Shown: positions 8,308 through 64,000 of the stretch, one piece after another
How the letters are laid out: each line of letters opens with the position of its first letter
How positions within the stretch are numbered: position 1 is the first letter of the stretch
Made by a program: the position numbers and the translations under genes
DNA from: Henckelia pumila
Lineage: Eukaryota; Streptophyta; Magnoliopsida; Lamiales; Gesneriaceae
Assembly (NCBI RefSeq): GCF_033568475.1
Contig: NC_133122.1
Coordinates: forward strand, 152,720,861 to 152,784,860
Direction of reading: 5' to 3'
DNA: 64,000 bases
Notes under the pieces: model-generated
Told to the model about the DNA's origin: nothing
Database searches by the model: none
The model's input: only the letters and a program-made list of their open reading frames with translations

Positions 8308-8319
8308 GCTTTGATACCA
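8308..8319 (-). other. Primer-binding site (tRNA-Met type)
   Basis: The + strand reads gctttgatacca, the complement of TGGTATCAAAGC. It lies 5 bp before the right LTR and differs by one base from the usual initiator-Met site TGGTATCAGAGC. It sets the minus-strand orientation of the element. Confidence 0.8.
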
Positions 8320-8324
8320 CTTAA

Positions 8325-42233: not shown

Positions 42234-42344
42234 TTTCTCCCCCACTAAGACATGAGTTCGTCCTCGAAATCATAAGCAAGCTGTATAGACAATCTGTATA
42301 CACATAAGATAATGAAATAGCATAAAACAAAATAAGAACTCACA

Positions 42345-45300
42345 TCAATGAAACAACTCTGGAAATCTCTGTCTCATGTCTGACTCAGTCTCCCAAGTCG
42401 CTTCTTCGATGCCATGTCGACTCCACTGAACTTTGACTAGCTGAATTATTTTGTTTCTGAGCTGTTTGTCTTTGCGATCAAGAATCTGAATAGGCTGCTC
42501 AAAATAACTAAGAGTCTCGTCAAGTTCAGCTTCATCAGGCTGAAGAATATGGGAAGGATCAGGCTGATACTTCCGCAGCATAGAGATATGGAATACGTCA
42601 TGAATACCAGACAAAGATGGAGGAAGAGCAAGTCGATAAGCAAGATCGCCTATCTTCTCAATAATCTCATATGGACCGATAAAACGTGGAGATAACTTTC
42701 CTCTCTTTCCAAATCTGACGGTACCTCTAAACGGAGAAATCTTCAAGAAAACTCTGTCTCCCTGATCAAAAGATAGAGGTCGTCGTCTGATATTTGCATA
42801 CTTTGCTTGTCTGTCCTGAGCTGTTTTCATTCTTTTCTGAATAAGCTTTACTTTCTCTGTCATTTCTCGGATCATATCAGGCCCAACATCAGGAACATCT
42901 GAGATATCATCCCAGTACAACGGTGATCTGCATTTCTTTCCGTACAATGCTTCAAAAGGAGCCATCTCAATGCTCGTCTGATAGCTGTTATTATAAGAGA
43001 ATTCTGCAAGTGGTAATGAATCTTGCCAACTAGTACCAAAATCTAGTATTACAGCTCTCAACATATCCTCAAGTGTCTGGATAGTCCGCTCTGACTGTCC
43101 GTCTGTTTGAGGATGATAAGTTATACTCAGATGCAATTGAGTACCAAGAGCTTGTTGCAAGCTATGCCAAAAGTGTGATGTAAATCTAGGGTCTCGATCT
43201 GAAACAATAGATTTAGGCACACCATGTAATCTTACCACTTCTCTGACGTAGATTTCTGCCATCTGATCATGTCTGTACGTCATTCTGTACGGAATAAAAC
43301 ATGCTGATTTCGTCAAACGATCAATAATCACCCAAATGGCATCGCACCCTCTGGATGAACGTGGTAGCTGTGTAACGAAATCCATGGAAATGTGATCCCA
43401 TTTCCATTCTGGAACTGATAGACTCTGCAATAGACCACCTGGTTTCTTTCTTTCTGCTTTTACCTGTTGGCAATTCAAACATCTGGCTACAAATTCAGTC
43501 ACATCTGACTTCATTTGTTTCCACCAATACTGCATTTTCAAATCATTATACATTTTTCTGCCACCAGGATGAATACTGAATCGACTACTGTGAGCCTCTT
43601 TCAAGATTTGTTGTTTCAAAGCTGAAACATCTGGAACAACAAGTCTGTTATTCACATATAACACATTATCAGCACTGACCTGATATTCAGATTGATGTCC
43701 AGATCTGACCATAGCAATCGAATTCTGAATATTCTGATCCTCTTTCTGTGCTTCTTTGATTCGTATCAAAAGTTCTGGCTCAGCTCGTATAGCACAAACA
43801 CAGATAGGGTGCATATCTGTTGCAAATATTAATCCAAAAAGACAACAATCTTCCACCATTTGAGATACACCTATCGTAGACAAGGATAAAGAACATACCT
43901 TTCTACTTAAGGCGTCCGCAGCTGCATTAGATTTTCCATAAAGATAATATTTAATCTCGCAATCAAAATCTTTCAATAAATCAAGCCATCTACGCTGTCT
44001 CATATTCAATTCTGATTGCGAAAACAGATATTTCAAACTTTTGTGATCTGAAAAGATTTCAAACTTCTCACCATAAAGATAATGTCGCCATATCTTCAAT
44101 GCAAAGACAATAGTGGCAAGCTCCAGATCATGGATAGGATATCGAGTCTCGTGTGGCTTTAACTGTCTCGAAGCATAAGCGATAACATGACCTCTCTGCA
44201 TAAGCACACAACCCAGACCCTTGTGAGAAGCATCACAATATACAACAAAATCACCTGTACCTGATGGAATCGTCAAGACAGGTGCACTTGTAAGCCTTTT
44301 CTTCAACTCCAAGAAACTAGTTTCACAGGCTTCAGTCCAGACATACGGCTTATTCTTCTGAGTCAGTTGCGTAATAGGCTTCGCAATGCTGGAAAAATCT
44401 CTGATAAAACGTCTATAATAACCTGCCAAGCCCATAAAACTCCGTATTTCTGGTACTGATGTAGGTCTAGGCCAATTCAATACAGCCTCGACCTTGCTTG
44501 AATCCACTGAAATCCCATCACCTGAAATAATATGCCCAAGAAACACAACTTTCTGCAACCAAAATTTACATTTCGATAACTTAGCATATAATTTCTCATT
44601 TCTCAAAGTCTGTAAAATGAGTCGAAGATGTTCAGCATGCTCATGTACATTCTTGGAATAGATCAAGATATCATCGATAAAAATAATGACAAAGTCATCC
44701 AAATATTTCTGAAATACCCGATTCATCAATCCCATAAATACTGCAGGAGCATTGGTTAAACCAAAAGGCATGACGATAAATTCATAATGTCCATACCTTG
44801 TTCTAAAAGCAGTTTTAGGAATATCTTCATCTCGTACTCTCAGTTGATGATATCCAGATCGCAAATCAATCTTTGAATAGATAGCTGAACCCTGTAGCTG
44901 ATCAAAAAAATCATCTATTCTAGGTAGTGGATATTTATTCTTGATGGTTACCTTGTTCAATTGACGATAATCAATGCATAAGCGCATGGAACCATCTTTC
45001 TTTCGTACAAACAGTACCGGAGCACCCCAAGGTGAAACACTCGGTCTAATGTACCCCTTGGCTAACAAATCTTCCAATTGATCCTTCAACTCCTTCAATT
45101 CAATAGGTGCCATTCTGTAAGGAGCCTTGGATATTGGTTGCGTACCTGGCATTAGATCAATACTGAAATCTATATCTCGTACTGGAGGTAAACCAGGAAT
45201 TTCATCAGGAAATACATCAGCAAATTCATGCACAACTGGAATATCTGTTACTGCTGGACTGGATTTTAATACATCGACTGCATAAATCAGAAATCCTTTC

Positions 45301-46652
45301 GCCCCTCTCTGCAATAAACGGGTCATAGATAACACAGATATCAAAGGAATCTTGGCTCGAGAACCCTTACCGTAGAATTTCCATTCAGATGCCATTTCTG
45401 GTCTAAATCGAACCACTTTCTGGAAACAATCTACAGTTGCTCTGTACTTGGTTAACATGTCGATACCAACAATACAATCAAAATCTGATAATCCAAGTAC
45501 TATACAATCTATATTAATCACATTCCCGTCATATTGCAACGCATAATTTCGAATCATTCGAACAGATATAATACCTTCACCCAACGGTGATGAAATAGAA
45601 ACAACAGTAGGCAATGGCTCAGAAGATAAAGAATGCATCATAACAAATTTTTCAGAGATGAATGTATGAGATGCACCTGTATCTATCAAAACATAGGCAG
45701 GATAACCATAAATAAAGCAGTTACCTGCTATGACATCGTCAGGTGCCGCCTGTGCCTGTTCCTCAGTAAGTGCAAAAACTCGAGCCTGTTGTCTAGGAGG
45801 TTGAGTCACAGTCTGGCTTCCTCCTCCTCTGGTCTGTTGCTGAGGTTGCTGAGGCTGAAATGAATGCACTGATTGCCTTTCGGCCTGAGGTATTGGTCGA
45901 GAAGAACTTTCACCTATAGCTCTTTGATGACATACCTTGGCATAGTGACCAGGTTGACGACAAATATTGCAATTACCTATCACACCCTTGCACTGATCAC
46001 TTGAATGTTTTCCACCACACTTAAAATAGAATTCTCCTGATTCACCAGTTCTCTGACCTGCCCCAAACTGTCTCTGTCCACTAGAACTTGAAGAACTACT
46101 ACCTGGCTTCTTAAATTGCTTTCCCTTTGGCCTGAATCTAGAATCCTTTCTGCCACTGCTTCCTCCCTCAAATCTGGGCGATGTTTGCTGAAACTGTGGC
46201 GGATTCTGTGGAATGAAAGCTGATACAGGCTGGGGAAATGGCTGTGGAATGAACGGTGTTCCTCTTTGTCGCAAAATACCTGCTTCGGCTCCCTTAGCTT
46301 TGTTCAAGGCATCAGCAAAAGTATTTGGTCGTCCACTGTTCACCAAGGTAAACACATCTGGATTAAGGACATTGATAAACTGATCCGCCATTGCTTCATC
46401 AGTAGCTGCTATATGTGGTGCAAACTTCAAAAGACTTGAAAATTTGACCACATATTCCTCGATATTCAAATTACCTTGCCTTAGATTGGCAAATTCAGCA
46501 CCCTTATCCTTCCTGTAGGAGACTGGAAAGAAACGTTGATAGAACTCAGTTTTAAAGACAGTCCAGGAGATAATCGTACCTCGTTGTTCCAATGCCCGTT
46601 TTGTTGTAATCCACCAACTTTTGGCAACATCATGAAGTTGATGTATTACCAA
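42345..46652 (-). CDS. gag-pol: Gag-Pol polyprotein (most of gag, PR, RT, RNase H, IN, chromodomain)
   Basis: An open frame of 1435 codons encodes the machinery of an LTR element. In order: capsid; a zinc knuckle [14 protein letters not shown] (about residues 228-241); protease [12 protein letters not shown] (about 323); RT with [18 protein letters not shown] and the catalytic FIDDILIYS; RNase [13 protein letters not shown] to ADALSRK; integrase with an HHCC zinc region ([11 protein letters not shown] ... CLNCQQVK) and DDE residues in [17 protein letters not shown] and SERTIQTLE; and a C-terminal chromodomain ([16 protein letters not shown]) ending [10 protein letters not shown]. The chromodomain places it in the chromoviruses, Tekay/Del type, and would steer integration into heterochromatin. 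The first zinc knuckle seen in the related Gag at 7.1 kb has lost its first Cys (Tyr). The true start lies upstream, beyond a frameshift. Confidence 0.95.
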
Positions 46653-46747
46653 TCGGATACGACGATCATCTGTATAGTCAAGTGATTCAAATAGTTGTTC
46701 TATATCTTCAAGCCAATTTTCACAATCAACTGAGTTTTCTGTTCCTT

Positions 46748-46939
46748 TCAGTTTTGCGGTTTGAATGATTGAAATCGCTTTAACAAAGTCTCCATTGGAG
46801 TAGCAGTAGGATCCAACGGGTCAGTAGATGTACTACCCTGTGCATTCTGAGTTTCAACAATTGGCGGTGGTACTTGTACTGGTTCAGCTGGAGGAACCAC
46901 TAATGGCTGTCTAATGACCGGTGCTTTACGAGGAGGCAT
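46748..46939 (-). pseudogene. gag: Frameshifted N-terminal end of the gag of the Tekay-like element
   Basis: This begins MPPRKAPVIRQP, matching the start of the Gag at 8022, and runs through [14 protein letters not shown] to a premature stop at 46748. The sequence just downstream (46653-46745) continues Gag similarity in another frame. A single-base loss near 46755 would explain the break. Translation from the normal start would therefore give only about 63 residues. Confidence 0.85.
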
Positions 46940-47250
46940 ATCTGATTGTCAAACAGATTAGTGCATAAACAATATAATATGCAGAAATTTATTCCATCCT
47001 TCTCTGATAAGCATTCTCATGAGAATTCAGGTTCTGACTAAGGATATTCTGGAATACAATTGCATATATATAGCATGCAGTAGCAATAAAAGCACATAAT
47101 CATGCAATCACATAATTATTTCTATATATAAAGCATGCTAGCAGATAATGCACATAATCAGATATAACATGTACTCTCATGCAATATTAAACAATCAGAC
47201 AGACTCAAACTACCCCGCTCATCAACTTCTATCTAAATCCAGAAACTTAT

Positions 47251-47262
47251 GCTCTGATACCA
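47251..47262 (-). other. Primer-binding site (tRNA-Met type)
   Basis: The + strand reads gctctgatacca, the exact complement of TGGTATCAGAGC, 5 bp before the 5' LTR. Confidence 0.88.
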
Positions 47263-47267
47263 CCTAT

Positions 47268-49118
47268 TGTGGGGACCCGGGTTGCTAATCTTATCTTAGG
47301 GCAATTTATTGTAATTAACAATTAAACAAGTACTTAAAAGAATTAAAGAAACAAGAGCTAAAAAAAAAATTTTTTGTTTTACAAGCTTCTAAACATAATA
47401 AACATAAACTAGCATGTATTCAAGCCATAATATACAAAGTTCTTGTATCACTTCTAGCATGGTTCAACAACATAAAGTACAAGTCGTGCTACTTAAGCCC
47501 GTGTCCTCACTTGCTATGCCTCAATCTCGAGCTATCCTTGTCTTTTCTGACTAGCTCCTGCCCCACCTATTGCCATGCACACATACAAAACAAAGCAATA
47601 GCCGGATAACTCCGGTGAGAATAAAATCCCAGTATAAACAACTTTAAACGCGAGATAATAAACGTGAATGCAATGCAAATGGCAAAGGAAGGCTATCAAG
47701 CTGATATCAATAAAACTTAGTTCTTTGGGATCCCGAGGAATAAAATAACTATCAAACCACCGATACTCCCATTCGAGGCAGCATCAAGTATTTTAGTCCT
47801 CTGACTTTGGTACAACTATAGTGAGTCTTCTGGCTCTGAACATAAATCCATATTCTGTGCCATGAGTCAAGCTGACTCTAGAAATAAATTTACAGTCCAT
47901 GCCACTCACTACATCTCTCCAAACGTCATCTGCACTCTAGGCGATGGCTGCCCTCTGTGCTATTAAGGCTTGAGTTCAAGATGAATGAAACATAAGCTGT
48001 ATGCATTAAAAGCTATAAAACACATCTTGAACAACTAAGCATATAAGCAAACAAAGCAGTACAAATAAATAATCACATGAGAAATATAAAGAAACAAGTA
48101 TGTGATTGACATGGGAATACTTGAAATGAAAGCTATTTCAAGCGTTCTATCCCATCTGGATTTGCTGTCATTTATACCTTTCTATGTCACGTCTGAAAGT
48201 ACTTCAAATCTGCAAGTACATCAATGAAAATTCATATCAAAAGGTTTCTCCACTTCTCAATTCAATCTCAAGTGCAAATGCTAGCAAACCTTGCTTCAAA
48301 TCCATCTCGGTTTGACTCGGAGATCTCGATTTCGGCAACTTCGATAGAAAGCTGATAAATTACATATCGAATAACTAACAAGATCAGATGTCATTCAAAC
48401 CATGCTTCGTTCAATCAACAATATCAAAGTCTTGACATTTTGCAAATCGACGGTATAACGGCTAAAACCGGCAATCCAAACAATATCCAAATCAATCCAA
48501 CAATCCAGATAACTTATAATCTCTAACATATCATCTCATTACCATAAAAATCAGTATCAATCAAACATGGTAGTGTTCGAATTATTCTTCCCAAATTCAT
48601 ATAAAATCCGAACGACAGTCTTTTTCCAAACCGTCTGCGAATACACGATCGGTACAGCTGATATACGCATATATGATAAAATCATAATTTTCCATCTTTC
48701 ACATAAAAATAAAATCTGAGATATGTGAATAAAACATGTACCAAATCGAAGGTCTCGGAGCTGTGATCGCAGATATATATTTATCTAGAATTTCTGACAA
48801 CCGGAGCGCGAGTTATCGAAGCTTTTACGGAGCGAAAATGGCGTGGGAAGGTTTCAGCTTTTATTTCTGCCTTTCTTTCTTTTTGGATTCTGATGATACA
48901 CGTGACAATGATATATATAAAGTGTAAGTTGAGATAAATATAGCCAAATTGCAGTTTAGTCCCTGAACTTTTGGCTATTTGCAATTCAGTCCCCGGAAAA
49001 GCGATTTAATTCAATCTCAACCCTTTTCAATTTAAGAATATTAGAATTTAATTCTAAAATCTAAATATTCCCAAATTAAATATTCTCGGATTAAAATTAA
49101 ATAATCCCGGGCCTTACA
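47268..49118 (-). repeat. 5' LTR of the Tekay-like element
   Basis: This 1851 bp LTR pairs with 40383-42233 and is followed by the AGTAC duplication. Both LTRs carry a short open frame of 63 codons near their inner end that is not a gene. Confidence 0.93.
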
Positions 49119-50272
49119 AGTACTGCCCTAAACACTGTCTTCCCAAAATTGAAAGGACCTATGGCATAGAGAATGAACGCCTGTGGCCTTGTTACCATGG
49201 TAGAATTTGATGAAGGCGTCCAATTCCTCACAGCAATTTTATGAAGAACCGAGTAGAATGAAGTGAGCTTAGCTGCAGAAAATTGCACGTGGTCAGAAAA
49301 TTGCTTGACCATACCACCAGTAAGAACAGAAATAACTTCATGAATGTCCGGGTGGTGTCCTTCATCCACATCGGGGGTTGAATATAGAAAGTTGATCACG
49401 GGTGGAGTAAACTCAAATAGCCTGCCCCGAAGATATACCAAACTATACTTTGCAGAATCTTGATCTTCAATACTCGAAGTAAGGTTGGCATAAAATTCCA
49501 GAATGACCCTCTTACAGTAGGGTATCAGAGCAACAACTGTAGAATAAAGCTTCCTAAGCTTTAAAAATTCGGTCAAAGAATACCTGCTGTATGACTCCAC
49601 ATCGATGTTCTTTTCATCCCACATTCCTCTGTGTACATAGAGAGGCCATACAGCAGCAGCATCACTAGAGTAAAATTGAAGGGAATGATTAGTATCAACA
49701 TCATACCCATCTTCAACAGTGTTGTCTGTGGTGTTGTCAACACCAACTGCAACACTGGCTTCATCAGTAGAAACAACCTCTTTATCCAAAGGTTCTTCAT
49801 CAGCATCCATGCTGGAAACATCATCAGAGTCTTCTTTATCTCCGATATCAGCACTTTTATCAAAAGATTCATCACCAGAATCGGCAGAGGAAGAGGAACT
49901 ATCTTCAAGATGTGCTTTGCCCGTAGCAAATTCCTCCATCATCTCAGCATCAGGTTCATCATCAGATTGATGAACAACAGAAATAGAGGGAGTAGACTTC
50001 CCTTGCTTGAGACTCTCTAAAATTTGTGCCAAAGTGGCATCTTCATCAGAAAAAGGAGTCTCCTTAGGAGCAGGTTGTGCAGTGTTTGCTTTCTTGGCTT
50101 GAGTAGGAAGAGGAACCTCATCGGAAGAACTCGAATCACTGCTCTCAGAAGCAGATTCGGCAATCGGAGCGGAGGCAGAGGCGGATGCAGAGGGTGAGGG
50201 TTTCTTCCTCGCGACAAATTTATAATCGGCATCCTCAGAGTCATCACCCAAACTACGATCTTCTTCGGCCAT
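49119..50272 (-). pseudogene. N-terminal part of the envelope-like ORF (split by insertion)
   Basis: The frame starts MAEEDRSLGDDSEDADY and has a long Ser/acidic low-complexity region. It then enters a folded region with SLTEFLKLRKLYSTVVA, VILEFYANL, VYLRGRLFEFTPPVINFLYS and FILYAIGPFNFGKTVFRAVL. These blocks match the 'putative plant transposon protein' domain, annotated as envelope-like in Sireviruses. The frame runs into the LTR at 49118 and gains about six foreign residues. The insertion, not substitution, is the inactivating event. The protein's function is not established. Confidence 0.8.
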
Positions 50273-50374
50273 GGAAATACGAGAACCCTTGTAAAACCTC
50301 TTTAACTAAGTAAAATATGGATTATACCAAGCTTGCCTCTTTGATCTGTGGGCCATTGGAGGAGCATGATGTAC

Positions 50375-50593
50375 TCAATTCAAAACAGAGAAATCCGACG
50401 GATTCTCTAAATCAATTTCGTTCCCAGGTTCTCTGGGCATGATTGCAGCAAGTGGAACGGGTTCCATGGGAACTGGAACGATCGGCAGAGAAGGAGCCGT
50501 GGATGGGTTTTCCGGTGTTGCAACACTGGCGGAAACATCGGGATTCACATGACCCATCTCGCTTCGAATATCCTGAGGATCAAAGCTTGCCAT
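50375..50593 (-). pseudogene. Short Pro-rich ORF upstream of the envelope-like ORF
   Basis: A 72-codon frame (MASFDPQDIRSEMGHVNP...) lies about 100 bp upstream of the envelope-like start on the same strand. The sequence between them reads on in other frames towards a basic FYKGSR stretch. It is probably the original N-terminal part of the same Sirevirus ORF, detached by stops or shifts, rather than a separate gene. Confidence 0.4.
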
Positions 50594-51616
50594 TGCAAAT
50601 GCAATTTGAGAATGAGAGAGAGGTAGGGTTTGCAGAGAAACAATAGGGTTAAAGAAGATTCAAGAAAAAGATAATGCCCGAAATAAAAGGAAACAAGAAT
50701 ATATAGCCTCTATCACAAATGGTAATATTTTTCCTAACAACCTCATAATTACTATGATTTCCTTATCTCATCAAGTTACTAACAGTAAATTTTCCTAACA
50801 TTCGAAAAATAAAAAATTGGAAATTAAGAGATAAAATCCCATAAATAAGGCAATAAACCGAGATATATATTTTGACCCAAATTTTCCAATATTAACTCCA
50901 CATCAGCATAACTCTACTAAAACAAAAATCAATCACAAAAATTCAATTTCAGTGTAATTCATCGAATTTTGTCTATTTTGATCCTTACCCAAAAACAGAT
51001 CCCTATTATCAAAATGCATATGCATGACCTATTTTATGCCTAAACAGAGTCTAACATAAAATAAAAATGCAATCACAAGCATATGATATGTTTACAAGTA
51101 TAGTGGTATCTCTCGTGTTGACAACATCATCAACAACACCAAAGTTTTTCAAAAGTATTTGAACCTTGCACACTTGATTACCCTTGATTTCAGAAAATTT
51201 CCAGAAGTGGTAGTCTGCACACTAAAAGAACAGTCTTCATTGGACTCAATTAGGTAGCTTTTTCCATTTTCTTCCGATTGTTGATAAAGTTTGTTTACAT
51301 CACATTGGTCATCAAACTTATTAAAAATTTGAACACTGAATTTGCGAAATCACCTTTCACATGGGACAAAAACATGAAATACACGTACATCCCTCAACTA
51401 CTTAATGGTTTATTCAGAGTTCGATTTTCAAGGGCCAGTGTGCTTAAAAAAATTTTTGCTGAAAAACTTGGCATCGACTGTATCACTGTAACAGAGATTT
51501 AAACACTACACATAACAAAGTGAATGCATAATGCCTAAAATCCTAAATATGCATGAACAGAAAAACAACAGTGTTGTCTAAGGTGTTGTAACATCGGAGA
51601 CAACACCAACAAAGAA
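50594..51616 (-). other. Spacer between copia pol and the envelope-like ORF
   Basis: AT-rich, no gene. Short runs of the 'acaacac ... gtgttg' type (about 51110-51145 and 51570-51610) echo those in the 3' LTR and envelope-like region. Confidence 0.5.
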
Positions 51617-51865
51617 TTATAATGCACACATGCTGAGAGATCTCCGAAGGGTTGAGAATCTCTTAAAATCTAATGCTTTAGTAAAAATTTCTGCCAATTG
51701 GTTATTGGTTCCAACAAAATCCATTCGAATCATAACTTTTTCTGCAAAATCTCGAATAAAGTGATGACGAATGTCAATGTGTTTTGTGCGTGAGTGTTGA
51801 ACTGGATTATTTGATATATCAATAGCACTCGAATTATCACAATAAACAATGGGGGGTTCACTCTT
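51617..51865 (-). pseudogene. pol: Ty1/copia pol C-terminus (RNase H end)
   Basis: 83 codons to a stop at 51617-51619. It reads [15 protein letters not shown], then [19 protein letters not shown] and [11 protein letters not shown], the hallmark end of Ty1/copia RNase H/pol. The rest of pol is missing to the right, where an LTR-like sequence starts at 51868. This fixes the strand and lineage of the element that carries the envelope-like ORF. Confidence 0.92.
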
Positions 51866-51867
51866 AA

Positions 51868-52769
51868 TGTGACGTCCCGTATTTTAAACATTGAATGAAA
51901 ATAGTTGCGAACTAAGGTGAGAAAATGTTTCAAAACTTAAAACCATATAGGGAGAGCATCACATCAATTCCAAAAAAATTTAAAATTCCAAATCTTTAAA
52001 AATAAAACTTGTGACTCAATGTTCACGAAGTCGAAGAAACACAGATGCAACCTTATAACAAATACCATTTAACATACAGCACGTCAAAACTTACTACTAA
52101 CATTTAAATAGGATGGGAAAAATGTGAGTTACTATAAACAAACTACGTACACCAAATACATTTAAAATAATCGAGGAACTCACATAAAAAATATCAAATT
52201 GAAATGAATATTTAAAAGACGAAACATTTGAAATCCACAAAACTTATCTTTAAAAGGTTGACAATGAAAATAATTAAATCATTACTTTTAAACATCATAC
52301 ATAAAATATTGTAACAACATGACATAAATAAACATAGGTAAATATTTTTGCTTTAAAAACATCAGAGTTTCTGAACTGTCGTGTCATGCAATGTCTTCGC
52401 CTCTTGGACTTTTCAGCCGTGCTACCAAAGATTTTAAGTCGAATCTTCTAATCCAACTGCACCATTCAATTATAGTGAGTCTAATGAATCAGCAAGATTA
52501 AAAACATGCATATTGATAACGTAATATCTTCAAAATACTTTAAACTTAAAATGACTTGAACATACATAACATGATACCTTGAACTTGAAGAATTTTAACG
52601 TAAACATCATGGAACTATAAACTTAAAAATCTTGAACATGAACTTCAAAACTCTTAAAAGATGCAAGGAACTTAAACATGGACATCAACTTACTTAACTT
52701 TAAATCTTGAAAGTAGCCTTCATGCATTTTCTCAAAATTTTACCATTTCATTCTTAATAAACATTTGCA
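51868..52769. repeat. Candidate solo LTR inserted at the pol end
   Basis: The segment starts TGTGACGTCCCG and could end at CA (52768-52769). CTTAA lies on both sides (51863-51867 and 52770-52774). It shows no coding. CTTAA-like words are common in this AT-rich stretch, so the right limit could be chance. Confidence 0.35.
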
Positions 52770-52966
52770 CTTAACATCTAATGAAAATCATGCAGCTTGG
52801 ACAAACATCAAACCATGAACATAACATAAAAAGTTATCATTTTGGGGTGATGAATTAAGTGAAATTGTGGTAACCGTCATAATGGGCACATTTGTAGTTC
52901 TTGTTGATCAACAAGCATTTTTTTTCTTTTCGGAGGCCCCTCCGGAGCTCATCCCGGAGTACCTAT

Positions 52967-53922
52967 GTTGAATCCTGACTTTTGGTGATAACAAAATAAT
53001 ACTTTGTTGTTTAGTCGGCCGCCAGTTATTTGTATAAGTAAGCTACGTCAACCGAACAAAGACATATCTACCGACGACAGTCAAAGCATGCAAAGCAGCT
53101 ACGTCAACCGAACAAAGACATATCTACTGACGTCAGCTAAAGCTTATCAACCAAAGAAAGATGCAAAACAGTTGTATGTCAAACATATCTACCGACTGAG
53201 ATATCTACCGAACTTCAAATACAAAAAGCTATACGCTACAGTTCGAAGTTACAGTTTTCCAGATCTCGGAAAGTGACAAGACAACTGAAAAGCAAAAGGA
53301 CGAAGCATTTAAGGATTTGTCTGATAAAGTGAGAAAGCCTTAAATAGCATTTAATGTGAGCGACACATTGAATAGACAATTAAAGGCGCTCCCAGTACGA
53401 AATATTCAGAAAGCTTTATCAGCAGGGAAATCCTACCGTTGGACAAAGAAGAAAGACGTTGAAGACAAAGACTATATATATCAAAGCCTCTCTGGACAGA
53501 AAGAAGATACAAAACAAACACAACAACGCTTATTGAGAATCTGTCTATCTGAGCTCTCGAACCCATCTTGAATACTCAACCGCTCAAAGAGAAAATCCTT
53601 AGTTTTAACAGCCTTATCCGATCTTCGAAGAGATCCTTTTCAAGGGTTGCTCAAATCCAAATATCGTTTGAAAGACGCTACCTTATACAAGGATTTGAGA
53701 AGTCTTAAGTCCTCGAGAGACTAAGATAATCATCATCACCATCTGAAGAAAAGTTTGATAAGAGCTTTAAATCTTATCACTGTGAATCTAGGAGTTTCAT
53801 ATTAGGCGTTGGATAAGTCTTAACTTGGATCGGGTGTATTGCAAGACATTGTAATTTATTCTAAGGAATGAAGACTTACGCAAGAGAAGGATAGTTGGGA
53901 CAAGACATGAGCTTAAATTACG
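52967..53922 (+). repeat. Copia-like LTR remnant
   Basis: TGTTGAATCCTG followed by 'ttttggtgataacaaaa' resembles the start of Sirevirus/copia LTRs. 'gtattgcaagacattgtaa' near 53838 is typical of their downstream part. The right end is not resolved and no target duplication was found. It contains a short tandem repeat at 53041-53143. Confidence 0.4.
53041..53143. repeat. Two-copy tandem repeat, 56 bp period
   Basis: 'agctacgtcaaccgaac' and the following bases through 'gacatatcta' start at 53041 and again at 53097 with few changes. Confidence 0.8.
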
Positions 53923-53924
53923 GC

Positions 53925-55049
53925 GCGGGTCGGGATCGCTTTCTCTAGTTTGGCAGAGTAAAAACGTATGCAGTAAAATTAAAAATGAAATTTTTTACCG
54001 TCCTATTTATAGGAGGACTAAATCAATCTCGACCTTTGGATGATAATACCGATCAGCGGTCCGGGGCGGGCCACGTCACTCGGGGAATATCTCAAAAATC
54101 GTACCGTCAGGAGATCTGGGCCGTTCACAGAAAACACATAATGCGGATCGAAATCCGGACCATTCATAAAAAGCACATTATGACAGATTACAGAACAAAC
54201 ACAATATCTTGGGCTCGGGTTCCAAACAGACAATTTGGTCTAAATTTCATACTTCTTTTTAGACCAGTAGGGGGAAGTACTATTGATGCCCCTGAAAATT
54301 ATATGGGTTTAATTAGACCCGAGCCCAATAATCCATATTCCTGGAAATATGTTTTAAGGCCCATCTAGTCTTCTTTTATGAGAAATCCAGTCTGGGATAG
54401 CCTTGTTAGGGAATAAGGTCATGGTAATAAATTCATGGGCTTGAGCTCCAGCTGGTATGGTTGAAGTCCGACCCCGGCCCAAGTCGGGCCCAATATCCAG
54501 AACCTTCCAATTATTCTCGGATATATTAAGATCTGCAACAGATAAGGACAATATTTCAAAAATCCAGAATGTGATAGGGTTTATAAGTCGGTTCAAGACT
54601 TTTGGTCATCAGGGTAACTTAGTTCTACTTGATCAAGGCTCTTACCTTGAGTAGAATTCCACCCTAATACAAACTCTACCTCCACAAAGTAATTACCCCT
54701 CCAGCCCTATAAATACAGGTACTTCTCATAGTTTTACACATTCATCTCTTCTATTCACTTCTTATCCACACACTCACGCACATATATACTCTTGTTCTTA
54801 CTTTTTGTCAAGCTCTTTATTTTTCGAGCACTGACTTAGGCATTGGAGGGGTCACGTCGAAACACCTTCAGCGCCCCATAACCTAGCTTCTGTTTGTGCA
54901 GAACTCCGTCGTGCCCGACCCGACCCAGTTTATTGCAGATTTGGAGATCCACTTTACCAGACCGAACCCAGGGAAAAATTTTCCAAGCATCGCACAGATG
55001 AAATACTAGTTGATGTCCCCATAAATTATTGGGTCTGGAAATCGACATC
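53925..55049 (+). repeat. Ty3/gypsy LTR-like remnant (possibly Tat lineage)
   Basis: Contains a TATAAATA box at 54708-54715. About 110 bp downstream is 'gcactgacttaggcattgga' followed by 'ggggtcacg', a layout common in U3-R-U5 of Tat/Ogre-type gypsy LTRs. Short open frames inside are not genes. The boundaries are approximate, and no internal domain or partner LTR is in the window. Confidence 0.45.
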
Positions 55050-55600
55050 ATCACTAGTATAATTAATTCTATAGTTGCATGATTACATCACTTTTTTTCT
55101 CTTTGGAGATGGGAAGGGTATCCACGAATACCCCCGATATCTACATACAACTTGATTAACTATGAGCTATAATATATGTCTAAGAACTCATATTTATAAT
55201 AAAAAATAATATTTTGAATAAATTTTTTTTTTGTAAGTTCGATATGTGAGAAAATATTGATCTCAAATGCGACACAATGGACCCTCATTTTCGAATTTTG
55301 TGTATCATAGTTTAGACTAGCCATTTTGTTGCATGCATTGCATGCTAATAATCTGTTTTTATAATAAATTTATATTTCAATTAAAATTCTCAAATAAAAT
55401 TATTATATTATATATTAAATACAAAAATTGGTGAGAATAAAAAAAATATTTAGATGAAACAAAGAAGAAAAAAATCATAATTGAGAGAAAAAAATGAGAT
55501 AGTGGAAAAAAGTGGTTGTGTGTTTTTTTTAATTTATATATTATTTTAATGGGCACACCAAGAGACTACACTAAAGGGCTCTTACATAATATATACTAGC
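55050..55600. other. AT-rich intergenic DNA
   Basis: No gene. The last 45 bp ('caagagactacactaaa' and onward) match a piece of the tandem repeat at 59108-59345, and the Cassandra array is inserted in it. Confidence 0.6.
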
Positions 55601-55979
55601 TGTGACGCTCGGGGATGAGGAGGCAGGGAGTGATCGCTGGTGCCAAGAGGTTGCACGGACAATGAGCGGCTCCTAGTAGGCTTCTAGGCGGAGGGATACA
55701 TGAATGAACCGATCCCGTGCCGGAATGAGAGGGAATTCTGAGACTGTGTAGGTATGGGACTACATAGTTGAGGAGGGCATAAAAGATTTCATATGTACTG
55801 CTCATATCAAGAAGGTGCATCTTCTTTTCGGAAGCTCATCACATAAGAACTCCAAAGTTAAGCGTGCTTGACTTGGGGCAATTATAGGATGGGTGACCCC
55901 TGGGAAGTTTCTCAGGGTGTGTGTGAGTGAGGACATAAGCACGCTGAAATGACCCGTCTTAACACAGTGGGTCGTTACA
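55601..55979 (+). repeat. Cassandra LTR 1
   Basis: 379 bp. It is the most divergent of the three (begins TGTGACGCTCGGGGATGAGG where the others have TGTGACGCCCGGGGCTGAGG). Confidence 0.93.
55811..55930 (+). promoter_or_regulatory. 5S-rRNA-like pol III module of LTR 1
   Basis: Matches plant 5S rRNA through 'aagttaagcgtgcttg' (A box, 55855-55870) and 'aggatgggtgacc' (C box, about 55887-55899), followed by 'tgggaagtt'. In Cassandra this internal promoter can drive pol III transcription. One C is missing in the C-box run compared with LTR 2. Confidence 0.9.
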
Positions 55980-55981
55980 AA

Positions 55982-55993
55982 TGGTATCAGAGA
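55982..55993 (+). other. Cassandra primer-binding site 1 (last base changed)
   Basis: Reads TGGTATCAGAGA; the usual last base is C. Compare the intact TGGTATCAGAGC at 56432-56443. Confidence 0.85.
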
Positions 55994-56049
55994 TTACCTC
56001 TCTTAGTACGGTATGGTTCGGGGACGAACCAAGCGGAAGCTGGTGGGCA

Positions 56050-56429
56050 TGTGACGCCCGGGGCTGAGGAGGCAGTGAGTGATCGCCGGTGCCAAGAGGT
56101 TGCACGAACAATGAGCGGCTCCTGGTAGGCTTCTAGGCGGAGGGAGACATGAATGAACCGATCCCGTGCCGGAATGAGAGGGGATTCTGAGACTGTGTAG
56201 GTATGGGACTACATAGTTGAGGAGGGCATAAAAAATTTCATATGTACTGCTCATATCAAGAAGATGCATCTTCTTTTCGGAAGCTCATCACATAAGAACT
56301 GCAAAGTTAAGCGTGCTTGACTTGGGGCAATTATAGGATGGGTGACCCCCTGGGAAGTTTCTCAGGGTGCGTGTGAGTGAGTACATAAGCACGCTAAAAA
56401 GACCCGTCTTGATACAGTGGGTCATTACA
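56050..56429 (+). repeat. Cassandra LTR 2 (shared, middle)
   Basis: 380 bp. It lies between the two internal regions and would serve as 3' LTR of the left unit and 5' LTR of the right unit. Confidence 0.93.
56261..56380 (+). promoter_or_regulatory. 5S-rRNA-like pol III module of LTR 2
   Basis: Contains 'aagttaagcgtgcttg' and 'ggatgggtgacccc', with 'ctgggaagt' after it; the least altered of the three modules in the C-box region. Confidence 0.9.
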
Positions 56430-56431
56430 AA

Positions 56432-56443
56432 TGGTATCAGAGC
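56432..56443 (+). other. Cassandra primer-binding site 2 (intact)
   Basis: Exact TGGTATCAGAGC, complementary to initiator tRNA-Met. Confidence 0.9.
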
Positions 56444-56499
56444 CGACCTCTCTTAGTACGATATGGTTCGGGGACGAACCAAGCGGAAGCTGGTGGGCA

Positions 56500-56877
56500 T
56501 GTGACGCCCGGGGCTGAGGAGGCAGGGAGTGATCGCCGGTGCCAAGAGGTTGCACGGACAATGAGCGGCTCCTGGTAGGCTTTTAGGCGGAGGGAGACAT
56601 GAATGAACCGATCCCGTGCCGGAATGAGAGGGGATTCTGAGACTGTAGGTATGGAACTACATAGTTGAGAAAGGCATAAAAGATTTCATATGTACTGCTC
56701 ATATCAAGAAGGTGCATCTTTTTTTCGGAAGCTCATCACATAAGAACTTCAAAGTTAAGCGTGCTTGACTTGGGGCAATTATAGGATGGGTGACCCCCTA
56801 GGAAGTTTCTCAGGGTGCGTGTGAGTGAGGACATAAGCACGCTGAAAAGATCCGTCTTGATACAGTGGGTCGTTACA
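56500..56877 (+). repeat. Cassandra LTR 3
   Basis: 378 bp. It is closest in sequence to LTR 2 at the start, and lacks 'tgt' in the 'gactgtgtaggtatgg' stretch present in the other two. Confidence 0.93.
56709..56827 (+). promoter_or_regulatory. 5S-rRNA-like pol III module of LTR 3
   Basis: Same module, with 'ccccctaggaag' where LTR 2 has 'ccccctgggaag', just 3' of the C box. Confidence 0.88.
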
Positions 56878-56882
56878 CTAGC

Positions 56883-59107
56883 AAACTTGGCACACGCGTT
56901 GCATGTGTAATAAAAATAAATTTAATGCTTCGAGTAAACTAACAAATAATTATAGATATATTACATATATACAGACTATGTACTTTTTAGAAAGACATAC
57001 AACTAATGAAGTTGAAATTATAATCTTAATATATAAATATTCAAAAAATAATTTATTTTTTGAGTTAAGCTTCAAGGATATTTCTGAATTTCAATCTTCG
57101 AACATAAACTTCTTCACGACCACATGGGTTTCTATTGTTTGGACCTATGGTATTGTAGTATCCAAATCGTCGTTGCTGCATAAATTCAATGTTATGATAT
57201 TAAAATTTATAGTAAATAATATATGAAAATATCGATATAATCGTGGTCTAATATTAACATTGCAAAAGAAAAGATACATAGAAAGTAATTTCCATTGTTT
57301 AAGGATGATTTGATTAGTTAATGTCTTTTTGGCATGTTGTTTGGGTTTTTAAAAAAATTCTCACTAATTCAAAAAAAAAACTTGAAAACAAATAATTTGA
57401 AGTTACTAAGAAAAAACAATATTAAATTATGTAGACATCGCTCATTCTAAAACATGGAATGAAGATTCTGCAAAAGGGAATCACTCAAAAAAAAAACATT
57501 AAAATTTGTAGATGAAGTCAATTCGTGGGAAAAATAAAAAGTAATACGAATTTAATTTTAAGACTAAATAAAATTTATAATATTTATCGATTCCAAACAC
57601 ACAAACAGAAAATTTTTAAGCTAGCTTTAACATTGTCAATACTCAAATTTATGTGGTCTAACTACTCCGTCAAATGCCAATAGAACTACAACAATAGTTT
57701 ATGTGACGCCGTCTGTGACCACTGACCATGCCTACTAATAACCATGATTACAACTATTGCACCAGATCCAAAAATTTCAGATAATTTGATATGTGCTTGT
57801 GTTTCTAGAACTTGGCACATATTACTTTACGGTTTTTACCACATAAATATATAAAAATGTTTGAGATGTGATATATTACCTCTAAAACAGAAAACATCTA
57901 CAATAGTTTTCTCATACAGCAACAAAAATCAGGCCAACCAAAAATAGTAAGAGATATCCAACAAACTCAAATAAAACACATGCACACTCAAATTTTTATT
58001 TTCTGAAACTCAAGTTTTTAACATGCGAAGATACTAATTGAAGAATCTTTCCCACTTAAATTAGGCATAGAAATCATACCGGACATTTTCTTCCAAACTG
58101 AGGTGGAGTCGTCGAGCCCTATCTACGGCTTTATCAACTTCGTACAGACTTGCTCTGAAGCTTCAGGCTCTCTTCTCCCCATGCTCTTTCTACTCCTTGT
58201 TTTTGTCGATCTCAATTTAAAACTCCTAAATAATTTTCCGAATACAACCTGTAAAAGAGTCCACCAATTAAGAATCTTAGATTGTCAATTTGCAAACCTT
58301 TGAAATCGATGACCTCAATGGACAGGAGCTAGCTGCTTTTGTTTAAAGAATTCATCGGTGCACTTCATAGTCAAATTGAGAAGACATCATCATATCAAAT
58401 TAATAAAATTTGATTCTAAATTATGAAGCCAAAAAAAGTACCGAAAAGTAAAATGCAAAACTCAAAAGGGAGATTTTCAGCTTTTTATTGATAATAAACA
58501 TTAGATTTCTTTAACACATTTTATCAAACATGTTACTTGCCTTTAATGCATTCAAACAACTGTAATCATAATTGTTAAATAGTAAAAGTTTGAAAACAAA
58601 ATATTCTTCAATCCATCAACATTGTTCTTTGATTTCACCAATTAATCTTGAACACTGCAACGAATTCTAAAAAAAAATATAAAAACACAACAGTACTATG
58701 TTTAAGAAAATCGAAGAAGGCCAAACCTGATAATTGAACCGTAAAAACTCTTGGCGGAAATACTTTTCGATGATGATTTGGGAGAGAGGCAGAGAGTAAA
58801 TGATCGATCAATGTTTGTCCAGATTTTGAGAGTGAAAAAAGAGAGTTTGAAACCGTAAAAAAACGTGTCAAAAAGGGTATAAAGTGGGACGGTTTTTTAA
58901 CCACGTTGGAAGAATAGGATGCAATTTTTGATTTTTTTCTCACGGTTTAAATTTATTTCTTAGTAAAATAATAGAAAATTATTGAAAAATTAAAAAAGGT
59001 CATACTAACGTATCAATAAGTTAGTATTAGACCCACATCTTTTTTAATAGAATAATAAGATAGTAAAATTTAATGAAATAGTAAGATAATAATATATATA
59101 TATATAT
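56883..59107. other. AT-rich intergenic DNA without a recognisable gene
   Basis: I find no convincing gene. An open frame at 56903-57226 is AT-driven and low in complexity. On the minus strand around 58082-58155 a short segment reads YEVDKAVDRARRLHLSLEEN followed by a GT, and 58635-58943 is open on the same strand. Neither links to a family I know. Confidence 0.5.
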
Positions 59108-59345
59108 GAATAGATACGGTAAATGGCTGGTCATATATATTTATATTTATAATACCAAGAGACTACACTAAATGACTTTTACATAATATATAGAAATAGA
59201 TAATATATAGGAATAGATACAGTAAATGGCTGGTCATATATATTTACATATTTATAATACCAAAAGACTACGCTAAAGCACTTTTACATAACATATAGAA
59301 ATAGATACGATAAATGGCTGGTCATATATATTTATATTTATAATA
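59108..59345. repeat. Three-unit tandem repeat upstream of the LSD1 gene
   Basis: Units start at about 59108, 59211 and 59298. Each contains 'gatac.gtaaatggctggtcat' followed by AT-rich sequence, and the first two continue with 'ccaa.agactac.ctaaa'. Spacing is 103 and 87 bp; the first unit has an extra 16 bp. It ends about 350 bp before the LSD1 start codon. Confidence 0.8.
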
Positions 59346-59694
59346 TTTATGCAGTAAATAATTGGAAGGGGGCATGGCATCCACCATACTGGATAAAGTT
59401 GCCAAGAAACTGCCAATACACGGCATTCGCTTCCCTCCCCCGATGTGACAACTGATAGAAAATTCCGATTCCAATTCCGATTCCTACTCCAACTACCCTA
59501 TCCTCAATCCTCCCCATGAAAACTCAGTTGTTTTCTTGATCAGATCTGTCTTTTTTATGGGTATCGTTTGAACATATTTATTTATTTATTTCTTTTTTTT
59601 TTTTGGACTTTTGGGTTTTGAAGCTCTGATTTTGCCTGTCGGTGGTGAATCTGGCCGTGTTACTTGCTTGAGATATTTTAGTGCGAGCGGAGGA
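59346..59694 (+). promoter_or_regulatory. Proximal promoter and 5' UTR of the LSD1 gene
   Basis: Pyrimidine-rich stretches near 59420-59440 and 59490-59520 are typical of plant transcription-start regions. The transcription start is not identifiable. A short T run lies at 59592-59602. Confidence 0.4.
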
Positions 59695-62600
59695 ATGCAG
59701 AGCCAGATTGTGTGCAACGGCTGTAGGAGTCTGCTGATGTACCCGAGCGGGGCAACCAATGTATGCTGCGCTTTGTGTAATGCCATCACTAATGTGCCCC
59801 CTCCAGGTTAATTTTGATGTCTGCTCGATAATTTGATAGAGTAATTTGTAAGTTTTTGGATGGAGAAAAGATGAGTGTGGTGTCATTTGTTGTGTTTCTG
59901 CGGGTAAAGTACTGTTTCTGTGATCTTTTATGACATGATTTGTTCTTTCTAATTAATTCTATCGCTTGAGAGGGTGAATATTTTTAGAAAGAAAGTTAGG
60001 TTACAATGCTTCTCGTCTTATGTAGTCCAAAACAATTTCAGCTGGCAAAATTTTGCTGTATTTTTGTCAATCATTTTCGTTGTCATTAATTGAGCTGCAT
60101 CATCTGATTGTTTTTTCAGTGTTATACGTGGACTAATTTGCGTTTAGCAATGGAACATACATTTTTATTCTTCGGTTTGGGTTTTAGAAGCAAGGAATTG
60201 GTTTTTTGGCTTCTTGATACAACGCGAGAGCCAGCTGCTAGTGCTATTTTGATTTTTTTTCCCTCCTAATTTTCACTCCACACGTTATTTTGCTCATCAA
60301 CTCGCACAATTATCTTTATACTGTTTACTTTTTCCCATCAGTCATTATGCTCTTCCACAGTTTCATAAAATATATCACGGAAACTTTCAAAACTTTTAAC
60401 CAAACAATATCTAAGAGCTATAATAGATACATAACTCTTTTGAAAAATCATTAGGTATAAAGCCCAAACTAAACACCACTAAAACCATTCCTTTCATTCT
60501 GTGAACTCGATATTTATGTTATAGATCAAAGAATGAGATCAATCGGAATCATGCCCACGGATTTCTATATGTGTGTTTGTGTATACACCAAGGCTATTAG
60601 ATTGCTCAGTCGACAATGTAGCTTAGAACAGAGCAATTTTCCATTATTTCCTAGTTTTAGGCTTCAATGTCATGGTTTTTCAATATAACATTGTCCCTCC
60701 ACAGGAATGGAAATGGCCCAACTGATATGTGGGGGTTGCCGTACATTGTTGATGTATACTCGTGGAGCTACAAGTGTGAGATGCTCCTGTTGTCACACGG
60801 TGAACCTTGCACCAGGTGATAATCATTGTTTACTGTAGATGCTACTTTAGAGACTACTGTTTAGTGACAAATGACAATGTCTTCAATCTAGAGTAATTTT
60901 GGTGTTTGATCTTGGCATCTTTGCTTATCCGTGAAAATTTTTGCTGTATTTTCGTTACTAATGCCACTGAAATGTATGGGGTACATACAATGTGATCTTC
61001 TATCAAGTTATATTTTGGAAGGATTTGATTCATACATTCACTGCCACTTTATCTCCTCCCATTGAACATTGTTCATGTCCTAAGACAAAAATTACATAAT
61101 GGGAAATTAGAAGAGCATATTATTATTATCGTTTTGGTGGCTAGATGTTAGATTATAAACCCAAGAGATGTTTGATCCTAAAATGCTTGTCAAATGGGTG
61201 TTACAACCTCATGTATTTATAAGCTATTCTTTTTTGGTTTTAATAACATTGTCGACCCCTTGAGAAGGCAATGTCCGTGGCTGCCTACTATGTACACCTA
61301 CATTTCAGTATTCAGCTCATGCACCATGCACCTCAATACACTCTATAACATGACTTTTTTTTTAACATGATTACCGACACTGGTCCGATGGTAATCCTTT
61401 TCTGATTGACTATTCCGCTACGCCGACTTTCAACGAGAGCACTAATGACTAATGTTAGGTTATAAACCAACAGTTGTTCCCAAGACCCAAAAGTTTGCCT
61501 AACAGGTGGTATAACCTCATAGGCTTATAAGTTATTCTTTATTTGTTTTAATATTCGATGTGAGAAATCTGTAACAGTAGACAACATAAAATTCTGCTCT
61601 TGCTATGATTATTGGTCGAGAAAGGAACATGAATGGCAAGTAATTGGTAAAATAAATTGTATGCTGTAAGGGAAACTCCAGTAGTTGATATCTGGTCCGA
61701 ATAAAGCCTTATTGATTGTTTCTTCTCCTCCAAGAGTGAAGATATTTGTGTTTCTTTTGTCCAAGCCACATTTAATGGTCGATCCATAACAATTACTGGA
61801 TAATAGGTTGATAGATATGTTTTTTATGCTTCCAAATCTGTCTTAACTCTTTATTTTTTTTATTGATGGTGCAGAGAGGGTGCAATGCAATAACATTATT
61901 ACTTTGTATTTACTGTTCATCTTTGGTGATCGCTATTTTTATTCACGGCTTGATTATATTAATCCAAAACCTCATAATGATAAGATCATGTGGAACCCAT
62001 CATGTAAATCCAAAAGATATGCAGAAACAACAAAAACAACTTATTTTGTCCATTGTCTGTCACCCATCTTAATGTGTAGCTGTTTTGTCTAGACTATTTC
62101 GGATTTCCTATGTTTTTTATTTGGATTTTGGTTGTTTTTTAGCATCTAATATCGCTCATGTCAACTGTGGAAATTGCCGCACAACACTTATGTACCCATA
62201 TGGGGCTCCGTCTGTCAAATGTGCTGTATGTCAATTCATCACTCATGTCAATGTAAGCATCCCAGTATATATCAATTGTTGTTGAGATTCGATGCACACT
62301 AAAGATCACTGAATGTTTTCTCATTCTTACCTGAATTCAACTAATGCTTGATTCTCATGGAGTATGTTAAACTTTCATTTGAGGTCATAGGATGAGTCGT
62401 ATGTTCCTTTTCTGTGCTGGTACTATGACTATCTATTTGTTTTGTGCTGGCAGATGGGAAATGTTAGGGTACCTATTCCCATGCATAGGCCGAACGGAAC
62501 TCCCTCTTCGGCATCGCCACCTTCAAGTACAGCGGTAAGTTCCTAATGTGGTTAGCTACCATGTAAGAGCTGCATATGGATCAGGAGCACCCTTCATGGG

Positions 62601-62857
62601 AAAGTCTTTTTTCTGAATGTTTAATTGTTGTCATTTTCTTTTTCCTTTGTGCAGGCATTGTCCAATTCTCAGAACCAAACCGTGGTTGTGGAAAACCCCA
62701 TGTCTGTTGACAAGAGTGGGAAACTGGTAGATCTGCTATTTGTGCCATCTGTGTCGTGATTTCTTACTACCCCCTTTCTGTTTGACCGAGTTTTGAACAC
62801 TATCTCAAATTTCAGGTTAGCAACGTTGTTGTTGGGGTCACTACAGATAAGAAGTGA
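59695..62857 (+). CDS. LSD1: LSD1-type zinc-finger protein, six coding exons
   Basis: Negative regulator of superoxide-triggered (hypersensitive) cell death and scaffold for metacaspase and bZIP partners in Arabidopsis. Exons: 59695-59806, 60705-60815, 62143-62252, 62454-62534, 62655-62726, 62816-62857. All have GT-AG junctions and join to 175 codons; Arabidopsis LSD1 is of similar length. Three zf-LSD1 fingers (C-x2-C ... C-x2-C): Cys7/10/25/28, Cys46/49/64/67, Cys83/86/101/104, each with the CRxLLMY (or CRTTLMY) core. The C terminus, [20 protein letters not shown] then TTDKK, matches LSD1 rather than the shorter LOL proteins. One oddity is residue 24, Cys, in finger 1 (VCCALC) where Arg is usual. 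Intron 2 is long (1.3 kb) and holds two diverged direct repeats. Confidence 0.95.
61146..61565. repeat. Pair of diverged direct repeats in LSD1 intron 2
   Basis: Copies lie at about 61146-61250 and 61457-61560. They share 'gttag.ttataaacc' at one end and 'ataacctcat...tttataag.tattctt' at the other, about 310 bp apart. They resemble each other at perhaps two thirds of positions and carry no coding. Confidence 0.6.
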
Positions 62858-63379
62858 TCCTGATTGATAATTTGGTGGATCACTGCAGCCATCACTAAGC
62901 CAAGAAATGCATTCACCATTTTGCTTTTTGGGTATATGAGGTATATATATATTTGGCGGGAATATATCTTGGTGATGTTGCTGCTTTGTGTTGTGGCACC
63001 TATGTTATCAAAAACAGAAGTGTTTGTGTGATTATGTATATTGAAAATATATATAAATATAATGTGATGAAAGCTCTACCTTCTGCGTCATTTGTAAGGA
63101 AATCATTGTAGTTGGGAGGAGAGAAACTAAGATCGTTGGTGTTGAAAAGTCTAGATTTGTTAGACTGAACTTGCTGTGCTAAGTGTGATATAAAAATTGA
63201 AGATAACAGCTTCTTGTAATATCATTATCTATAGTCCTATGCTACCAGTGATCCTTGATCTGTGCTGGGAAGAATATCTGCAGTTGGGTGGCACAACCTT
63301 GTCATGAGTTGTGTTTTTGAACTGCTTTACATGCAGAACCCATAAAAATCGTGCTACATTCACAGATATGTTCTTGAAT
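62858..63379 (+). other. 3' flank of the LSD1 gene
   Basis: 3' UTR and flank of the LSD1 gene, AT-rich, with no polyadenylation site that I can assign. No gene. Confidence 0.4.
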
Positions 63380-63535
63380 TCATGAATCATGATACGACTG
63401 TGTGTGAAGATGGTGTAACCTTGCGGCAGAAGCATATGGTGCATTTGCAATATTGCCAATATTTCCACCCCCTTCAATTTCTCTACTGATAACAAGGGCA
63501 TGAAATTTAAGATCCCCATGTGTGCCGTGAGGGCA
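63380..63535 (-). other. Possible terminal exon of an unidentified minus-strand gene
   Basis: The minus strand is open for about 50 codons to a TGA at 63380-63382, reading in part HGDLKFHALVISREIEGGG and NIGNIANAPYASAARLHHLH. The composition is protein-like. I do not recognise a family and cannot place a splice acceptor, so it may be chance. Confidence 0.2.
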
Positions 63536-64000
63536 AGGCGAAAGCTATGCTACTCGCGGAGAATTATATCACATCATCTTAAAACCGTTGGACTACATAG
63601 GTCCCAAAACTACATGTGAAATTTACCCAGCATAGAAATATCCTTGGCTATATTGAAAGGTTAGCAGTGAAATGTGGTGTTACGGTCCGAATTTGCATCG
63701 CTAGACACTACTTCGAGTGAGTATCAAACTCCGAGAGTTACAAAGATGTCATGGGAAGAAGACAACGGTTTTTACGAGCATAATTTTTATTTAATATTTA
63801 ATTAAATCAATTCCACTGGTAACTCGACTTAACCAAAATGTCGCTGATCTAAATGGCAGGAGGTCCATGTGGTTCAAAAGAAGTAAAGAATCAACCTTAA
63901 TCATAAACATGATGTGAATAATGGTGCTAGCAGTTGTGTATTTAAGGCATCTCTGGTACATTTACTCGAGGTCTTCATATAATTACACGCTGGCCATTTT
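63536..64000. other. Unassigned sequence at the window end
   Basis: No gene, repeat or transposon end recognised in the last 465 bp. Confidence 0.4.

What the first reader, a model, noticed from the sequence alone, without database searches (positions are those of the whole stretch)
55596..56882. Three-LTR tandem Cassandra array inside one target duplication
The sequence shows LTR-internal-LTR-internal-LTR, each LTR 378-380 bp and each internal region 70 bp, bounded by a single perfect CTAGC duplication. A standard insertion would have two LTRs. Both internal regions carry a primer site, but only the second is unchanged. The array could arise by unequal crossing-over between sister copies or by integration of a tandem cDNA; the single outer duplication is compatible with either. 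LTR 1 is the most divergent, which may help to order events.
Basis: partly seen in the sequence, partly recalled or inferred. Interest (0 to 1): 0.75.

Follow-up and report, generated by a model that had tools for sequence, protein, structure and literature searches.

The report
Three-LTR tandem Cassandra retrotransposon, ordinary type
A small non-coding plant jumping element carrying a 5S-RNA-like promoter sits here as a three-repeat tandem instead of the usual two; the structure looks real, but such tandems are common and already described in plants.

Summary
In detail: LTR 379 bp, internal 70, LTR 380, internal 70, LTR 378, flanked by one perfect CTAGC duplication. Each LTR carries an intact 5S-type box A, an 18-nt spacer and box C; the Met-type primer site is exact only in the second internal region. 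This is a Cassandra TRIM in the L3I2 form. Published surveys describe short Cassandra arrays of 'about three' LTRs in many plants (PMC7215508), and L3I2 as the commonest tandem TRIM form in maize, 63 of 93 (PMC4717578). What is added here is timing. The three LTRs differ in a star-like pattern (11, 7 and 8 private events), 18 of 19 majority-polarised transitions run C>T or G>A, and the internal regions differ about as much as the LTRs. So the array has probably been triple for most of its life; a late unequal crossover is disfavoured. Insertion of a ready-made tandem cDNA and an early crossover cannot be told apart. 'LTR1 is the most divergent' is true in count but not statistically (p=0.61). 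Other copies, relatives and long reads could not be examined. New member of a known kind; low interest.

The parts
55596..55600 (.). target site duplication, left copy (CTAGC)
55601..55979 (+). LTR 1, 379 bp, TG...CA
55856..55898 (+). 5S-type box A, 18-nt spacer, box C in LTR 1
   Evidence: exact match to published Cassandra box motifs; Rfam 5S_rRNA 24.5 bits, below the gathering score of 38
55980..56049 (+). internal region 1, 70 bp; primer site changed at its last base
56050..56429 (+). LTR 2, 380 bp, shared by both units
56305..56347 (+). 5S-type box A, 18-nt spacer, box C in LTR 2
   Evidence: Rfam 5S_rRNA 31.1 bits, below gathering 38
56430..56499 (+). internal region 2, 70 bp; exact TGGTATCAGAGC primer site at 56432-56443
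56500..56877 (+). LTR 3, 378 bp, private 2-bp deletion
56753..56795 (+). 5S-type box A, 18-nt spacer, box C in LTR 3
   Evidence: Rfam 5S_rRNA 24.1 bits, below gathering 38
56878..56882 (.). target site duplication, right copy (CTAGC)

Best explanation
A Cassandra TRIM in the L3I2 tandem form that entered this site in one integration event (one outer 5-bp duplication; shown) and has had three LTRs for all or most of its life (inferred from star-like divergence). Either a tandem cDNA, made by reverse transcription of a read-through transcript or by template switching, was integrated as such, or a two-LTR insertion gained its third LTR by unequal exchange between its LTRs soon after integration. 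I lean slightly to the tandem insertion (about 55 to 45), because the star pattern needs no second event; this lean is weak. Since then the LTRs have decayed independently, mostly by C>T and G>A changes (shown, with majority polarity); that DNA methylation drove this is inferred, and only weakly, since 8 of the 18 such changes lie at CpG or CHG sites.
For: Structure and single TSD. Boxes A and C intact in 3 of 3 LTRs. Private events 11/7/8, equal within error (p=0.61). Of 24 majority-polarised substitutions, 18 are C>T/G>A, 1 is T>C and 5 are transversions, so the majority base looks mostly ancestral and derived states shared by two LTRs look few. Internal regions differ at 4 of 70 sites against 3.1 expected from LTR divergence. 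Mosaic likelihood: best f (fraction of the array's age since LTR2 formed) is 0.66 with 2 internal events counted, 0.72 with 4, gaining 1.76 and 1.22 lnL over a star; 31 of 150 star simulations gain 1.76 or more; f=0.3 lies 3.5 (or 4.9) lnL below the best, f=0.2 7.3 (or 9.3). Precedent: PMC7215508, PMC4717578, PMC11899658.
Against: The best-fitting model is a mild mosaic with a breakpoint near column 135, in the sense that unequal crossing-over predicts, though not significant. Three of the four internal differences are adjacent and may be one event, which leaves 2 events and weakens that clock. No outgroup was available, so polarity rests on majority of three, and a GC-rich LTR would favour C>T/G>A by composition alone to some extent. 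If the tandem cDNA had come from an already diverged array, the middle LTR could have brought old differences; LTR2 in fact has the fewest private events (7), so nothing speaks for that version. Gene conversion among LTRs could erase or mimic either pattern.
Confidence: 0.85

Rival explanations
1. A standard two-LTR Cassandra inserted, and much later unequal crossing-over between its 5' and 3' LTRs on sister chromatids or homologues made the third LTR.
For: The geometry is what such a crossover gives; a non-significant mosaic signal with break near column 135 lies in the predicted direction. Recombination is the origin suggested for maize Wukong multi-LTR elements (PMC4528315 section 13).
Against: LTR2 has 7 private events; simulations gave 7 or more in 0 of 60 at f=0.2, 3 of 60 at f=0.3, 3 of 60 at f=0.4 and 14 of 60 at f=0.5. 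Only 1 of 19 transitions has the polarity expected of a shared derived state; P=0.002 at f=0.2, 0.009 at 0.3, 0.031 at 0.4, 0.083 at 0.5. Crossover at f of 0.5 or more is not excluded.
Confidence: 0.1
2. Assembly artefact: one unit was duplicated by the assembler.
For: No reads could be examined.
Against: The LTRs carry 7 to 11 private events each and the internal regions differ at 4 of 70 sites; a copied unit would be nearly identical. Tandem TRIMs in maize were confirmed by PCR and sequencing (PMC4717578) and a rice tandem LTR insertion by 4 long reads (PMC11899658).
Confidence: 0.03
3. Two separate Cassandra insertions that recombined or nested.
For: Would also give more than two LTRs.
Against: There is no TSD or foreign sequence between the units; both units pass directly from LTR end to primer site and from internal end to LTR start; one outer TSD. 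Recombination between separate insertions would normally join unlike flanks (inference).
Confidence: 0.02

Closest known systems
Tandem Cassandra arrays (Kalendar et al. 2020, PMC7215508)
   Same: LTR-internal-LTR-internal-LTR with 5S boxes A and C in each LTR, PBS TGGTATCAGAGC; [quoted passage not shown] Cassandra repeat units in its Table 2 range from 377 to 537 bp, here 449
   Different: The paper describes its long arrays as almost identical units; here the LTRs differ by 4-5%. The paper names pol III terminators in the LTRs; here no run of four T lies within 120 bases after box C. Host species unknown
TA-TRIM form L3I2 (Gao et al. 2016, PMC4717578)
   Same: Three LTRs, two internal regions, outer 5-bp TSD; L3I2 is 63 of 93 tandem TRIMs in maize; tandem TRIMs in 35 of 43 genomes
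   Different: Its illustrated maize examples are SMART, not Cassandra
Wukong multi-LTR TRIMs of maize (PMC4528315)
   Same: 8 of 89 intact elements have three LTRs
   Different: Different TRIM family
Tandem LTR-retrotransposon insertions in rice (PMC11899658)
   Same: Tandem sharing an internal LTR inside one TSD, judged linked to one insertion; mechanism left open between recombination and tandem insertion
   Different: Not a Cassandra; LTRs of the rice insertion described first are 85-89% identical, here about 95-96%

Membership tests
[quoted passage not shown]
   exact match in 3 of 3 LTRs, no other match in the 64-kb window on either strand (motifs from PMC7215508)
Cassandra TRIM | 5S rRNA similarity in the LTR as a covariance-model match | tested here: inconclusive
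   5S_rRNA at 31.1, 24.5 and 24.1 bits, E 0.0044, 0.23 and 0.3, below the gathering score of 38 (window 50000-64000); none in the whole window at the gathering threshold
Cassandra TRIM | Met-type primer binding site TGGTATCAGAGC after the LTR | tested here: met
   exact in internal 2, 11 of 12 in internal 1
Cassandra TRIM | no coding region; one-element length within the known range (563-968 bp) | tested here: met
   two LTRs plus one internal is 829 or 828 bp (range from PMC10853983); no ORF of 150 aa or more overlaps the array (shorter ORFs not listed)
Cassandra TRIM | RNA polymerase III terminator in the LTR (named in PMC7215508) | tested here: inconclusive
   only TTT, no run of four or more T, within 120 bases after box C in 3 of 3 LTRs; whether TTT serves is not known
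Cassandra TRIM | polypurine tract before the 3' LTR | tested here: inconclusive
   internal regions end AAGCGGAAGCTGGTGGGCA, purine-rich but not a clean tract (sequence printed, judged by eye)
Cassandra TRIM | sequence relatedness to reference Cassandra copies | not tested
   no plant reference held; exact-pattern scans of viral and bacterial/archaeal collections found 0; genome search unanswered
[quoted passage not shown]
TA-TRIM, L3I2 | confirmed in DNA as not an assembly artefact | not testable with these tools
   no reads; private changes in each LTR argue against an artefact

The most novel reading that the evidence does not exclude
The array was integrated as a ready-made tandem cDNA, so that Cassandra tandems can be direct products of retrotransposition rather than of later recombination; the star-like divergence of three LTRs and the similar age of both internal regions would be the record of it.
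Probability: 0.45. Interest if true: 0.3.

Novelty: new member of a known kind. Interest (0 to 1): 0.13.

Why it matters
As a single locus it matters little. Its use is methodological: in a three-LTR array inside one TSD, counting private against shared changes in the middle LTR dates array formation relative to insertion. Applied genome-wide with an outgroup, that could help settle whether tandem TRIMs arise during retrotransposition or by later recombination, which PMC11899658 leaves open. I did not search whether this dating has been applied to TRIM arrays before.

Tried and rejected
LTR1 as the oldest or most diverged copy: rejected, private events 11/7/8 do not differ from equal (p=0.61). 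Late crossover: disfavoured, not excluded for f of about 0.5 or more. Mosaic LTR2: best break near column 135 on a 5-column grid, but 31 of 150 star simulations gain as much; the converse control model gains 0.60 lnL (2 internal events) or 0.32 (4), with no real breakpoint. Other Cassandra copies in the window: none found (LTR3 and internal 2 against the window at E 1e-3; box motif scan). The TGTGACGC at 57702 looks like a chance octamer: LTR3 finds nothing there. A pre-insertion site elsewhere in the window: the 39 bases left of the target site match two repeat units near 59.2 kb, but the match stops at the target site and the right flank does not continue it, so no empty site was found. Relatives in public collections: 0 in viral contigs and 0 in genome contigs, exact patterns only, as expected for a plant element. 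Counting arrays genome-wide: not possible, the genome search did not complete. RNA folding of the internal regions: not exceptional (z -1.52 and -1.53). Methylation signature: weak, only 8 of 18 C>T/G>A changes at CpG or CHG (labels). The tri-state column (252) was dropped from the event counts, and the 2-bp deletion of LTR3 was counted once. No tRNA gene in the window.

Full report
What is there. The sequence reads CTAGC, LTR (379), internal (70), LTR (380), internal (70), LTR (378), CTAGC at 55596-56882. Tandem Repeats Finder reports one array of 2.8 copies of a 449-bp unit, 95% matches. All three LTRs run TGTGACGC...TTACA.

What it is. Each LTR contains box A, an 18-nt spacer and box C of the 5S type in the published Cassandra arrangement, with 43 identical bases in all three copies; no other such site lies in the window on either strand (motifs from PMC7215508). 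The Rfam 5S model hits all three at 24 to 31 bits, below its gathering score of 38, as expected if the sequence is 5S-derived and not a gene (inference). The primer site TGGTATCAGAGC is exact in internal 2 and has one mismatch in internal 1. One element's worth (two LTRs and one internal) is 829 or 828 bp, inside the 563-968 bp range of 81 Cassandra references (PMC10853983 section 12). No ORF of 150 aa or more overlaps it. Two family features are not clean: the polypurine tract is poor by eye, and no run of four T follows box C within 120 bases. No reference Cassandra could be aligned.

Chromosomal setting. The window is TE-rich DNA, plant by its elements (inference; host species not identified). 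A 1435-aa Ty3-type frame at 42345-46652 lies between 1.85-kb direct repeats that are 98.8% identical, and a pair of 2-kb direct repeats at 98.2% surrounds a gag-type ORF at 6829-8136. ABC-transporter pieces lie at 24154-24834 and 26816-27757.

Order of events. The LTR alignment has 28 variable columns, here 27 events because the 2-bp deletion of LTR3 counts once. One column has three states and was dropped; of the other 26, LTR1 is odd in 11, LTR2 in 7 and LTR3 in 8, not different from equal (p=0.61). If LTR2 had been made late by unequal crossing-over, it would have few private changes, would match LTR3 on its left and LTR1 on its right, and the two internal regions would be nearly identical. 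Instead LTR2 has 7 private events, and the internal regions differ at 4 of 70 sites against 3.1 expected from the LTRs; three of these four are adjacent and may be one event. A likelihood with free breakpoint puts the formation of LTR2 at 0.66 of the array's age before now (0.72 if all four internal sites count), with 1.76 (1.22) lnL over a star; 31 of 150 star simulations reach 1.76; 0.3 lies 3.5 (4.9) lnL below the best. Polarised by majority, the 24 substitutions are 18 C>T/G>A, 1 T>C and 5 transversions; derived states shared by two LTRs would appear reversed, so they look few (P 0.009 at f=0.3, 0.031 at 0.4, 0.083 at 0.5). This assumes a strong C>T/G>A bias of mutation, which the GC-rich LTR may exaggerate. 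The array has thus probably been triple for most of its life. Mean LTR divergence is 0.046, about 1.8 My at 1.3e-8 per site per year or 3.3 My at 7e-9 (both rates recalled, not tested for this species).

Mechanism. Two routes fit: insertion of a tandem cDNA, or crossover soon after insertion, before the LTRs had diverged. Kalendar et al. (Discussion) propose intrachromosomal LTR recombination and template switching during reverse transcription as not mutually exclusive, and report transcripts of two to five Cassandra units (section 2.3). Morales-Diaz et al. (Discussion) name exchange between LTRs on sister chromatids or homologues, and insertion of tandem structures, and leave the choice open. 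I lean slightly to tandem insertion.

Known or new. Kalendar et al. [quoted passage not shown] Gao et al. 2016 name this form L3I2, show a maize SMART example with a 5-bp TSD, and give 63 of 93 tandem TRIMs in maize as L3I2. In maize Wukong, 8 of 89 intact elements have three LTRs. The pear study of multi-LTR Cassandra (Yin et al. 2014) was not held; that it counts 252 such elements in pear and 13 in apple is as told in PMC4528315. What was seen of each paper: PMC7215508 abstract and outline, Results part 1 of 2, section 8, Discussion, figure legends and tables; PMC4717578 passages and section 8; PMC11899658 abstract and sections 8, 12, 13; PMC4528315 passages and section 13; PMC10853983 passages and sections 12 and 16. 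Other papers were seen as search listings only. The locus is a new member of a known kind.

Limits.

Noticed in passing
55557-55595 with 59154-59192 and 59259-59297: The 39 bases just left of the target site match two units of a roughly 105-bp tandem repeat at 59091-59307 at 92% and 85%; the match stops at the target site and does not continue to the right of the array.
   Followed up: partly
56014-56031 and 56464-56481: Both internal regions can form the same perfect 7-bp hairpin, TGGTTCG-GGGA-CGAACCA; the fold energy of the whole internal region is not exceptional.
   Followed up: partly
40380-49118: A Ty3-type element: direct repeats 40380-42233 and 47265-49118 at 98.8% around a 1435-aa open frame with gag, protease, RT and RNase H matches, and integrase-core and chromodomain matches below Pfam's cut-off.
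   Followed up: no
3159-10299: A second young LTR-like pair, 3159-5157 and 8319-10299 at 98.2%, around a gag-type ORF at 6829-8136.
   Followed up: no
55601-56877: After box C each LTR has only TTT, no run of four or more T, within 120 bases, so an RNA polymerase III transcript from one LTR might read on into the next unit (inference).
   Followed up: partly
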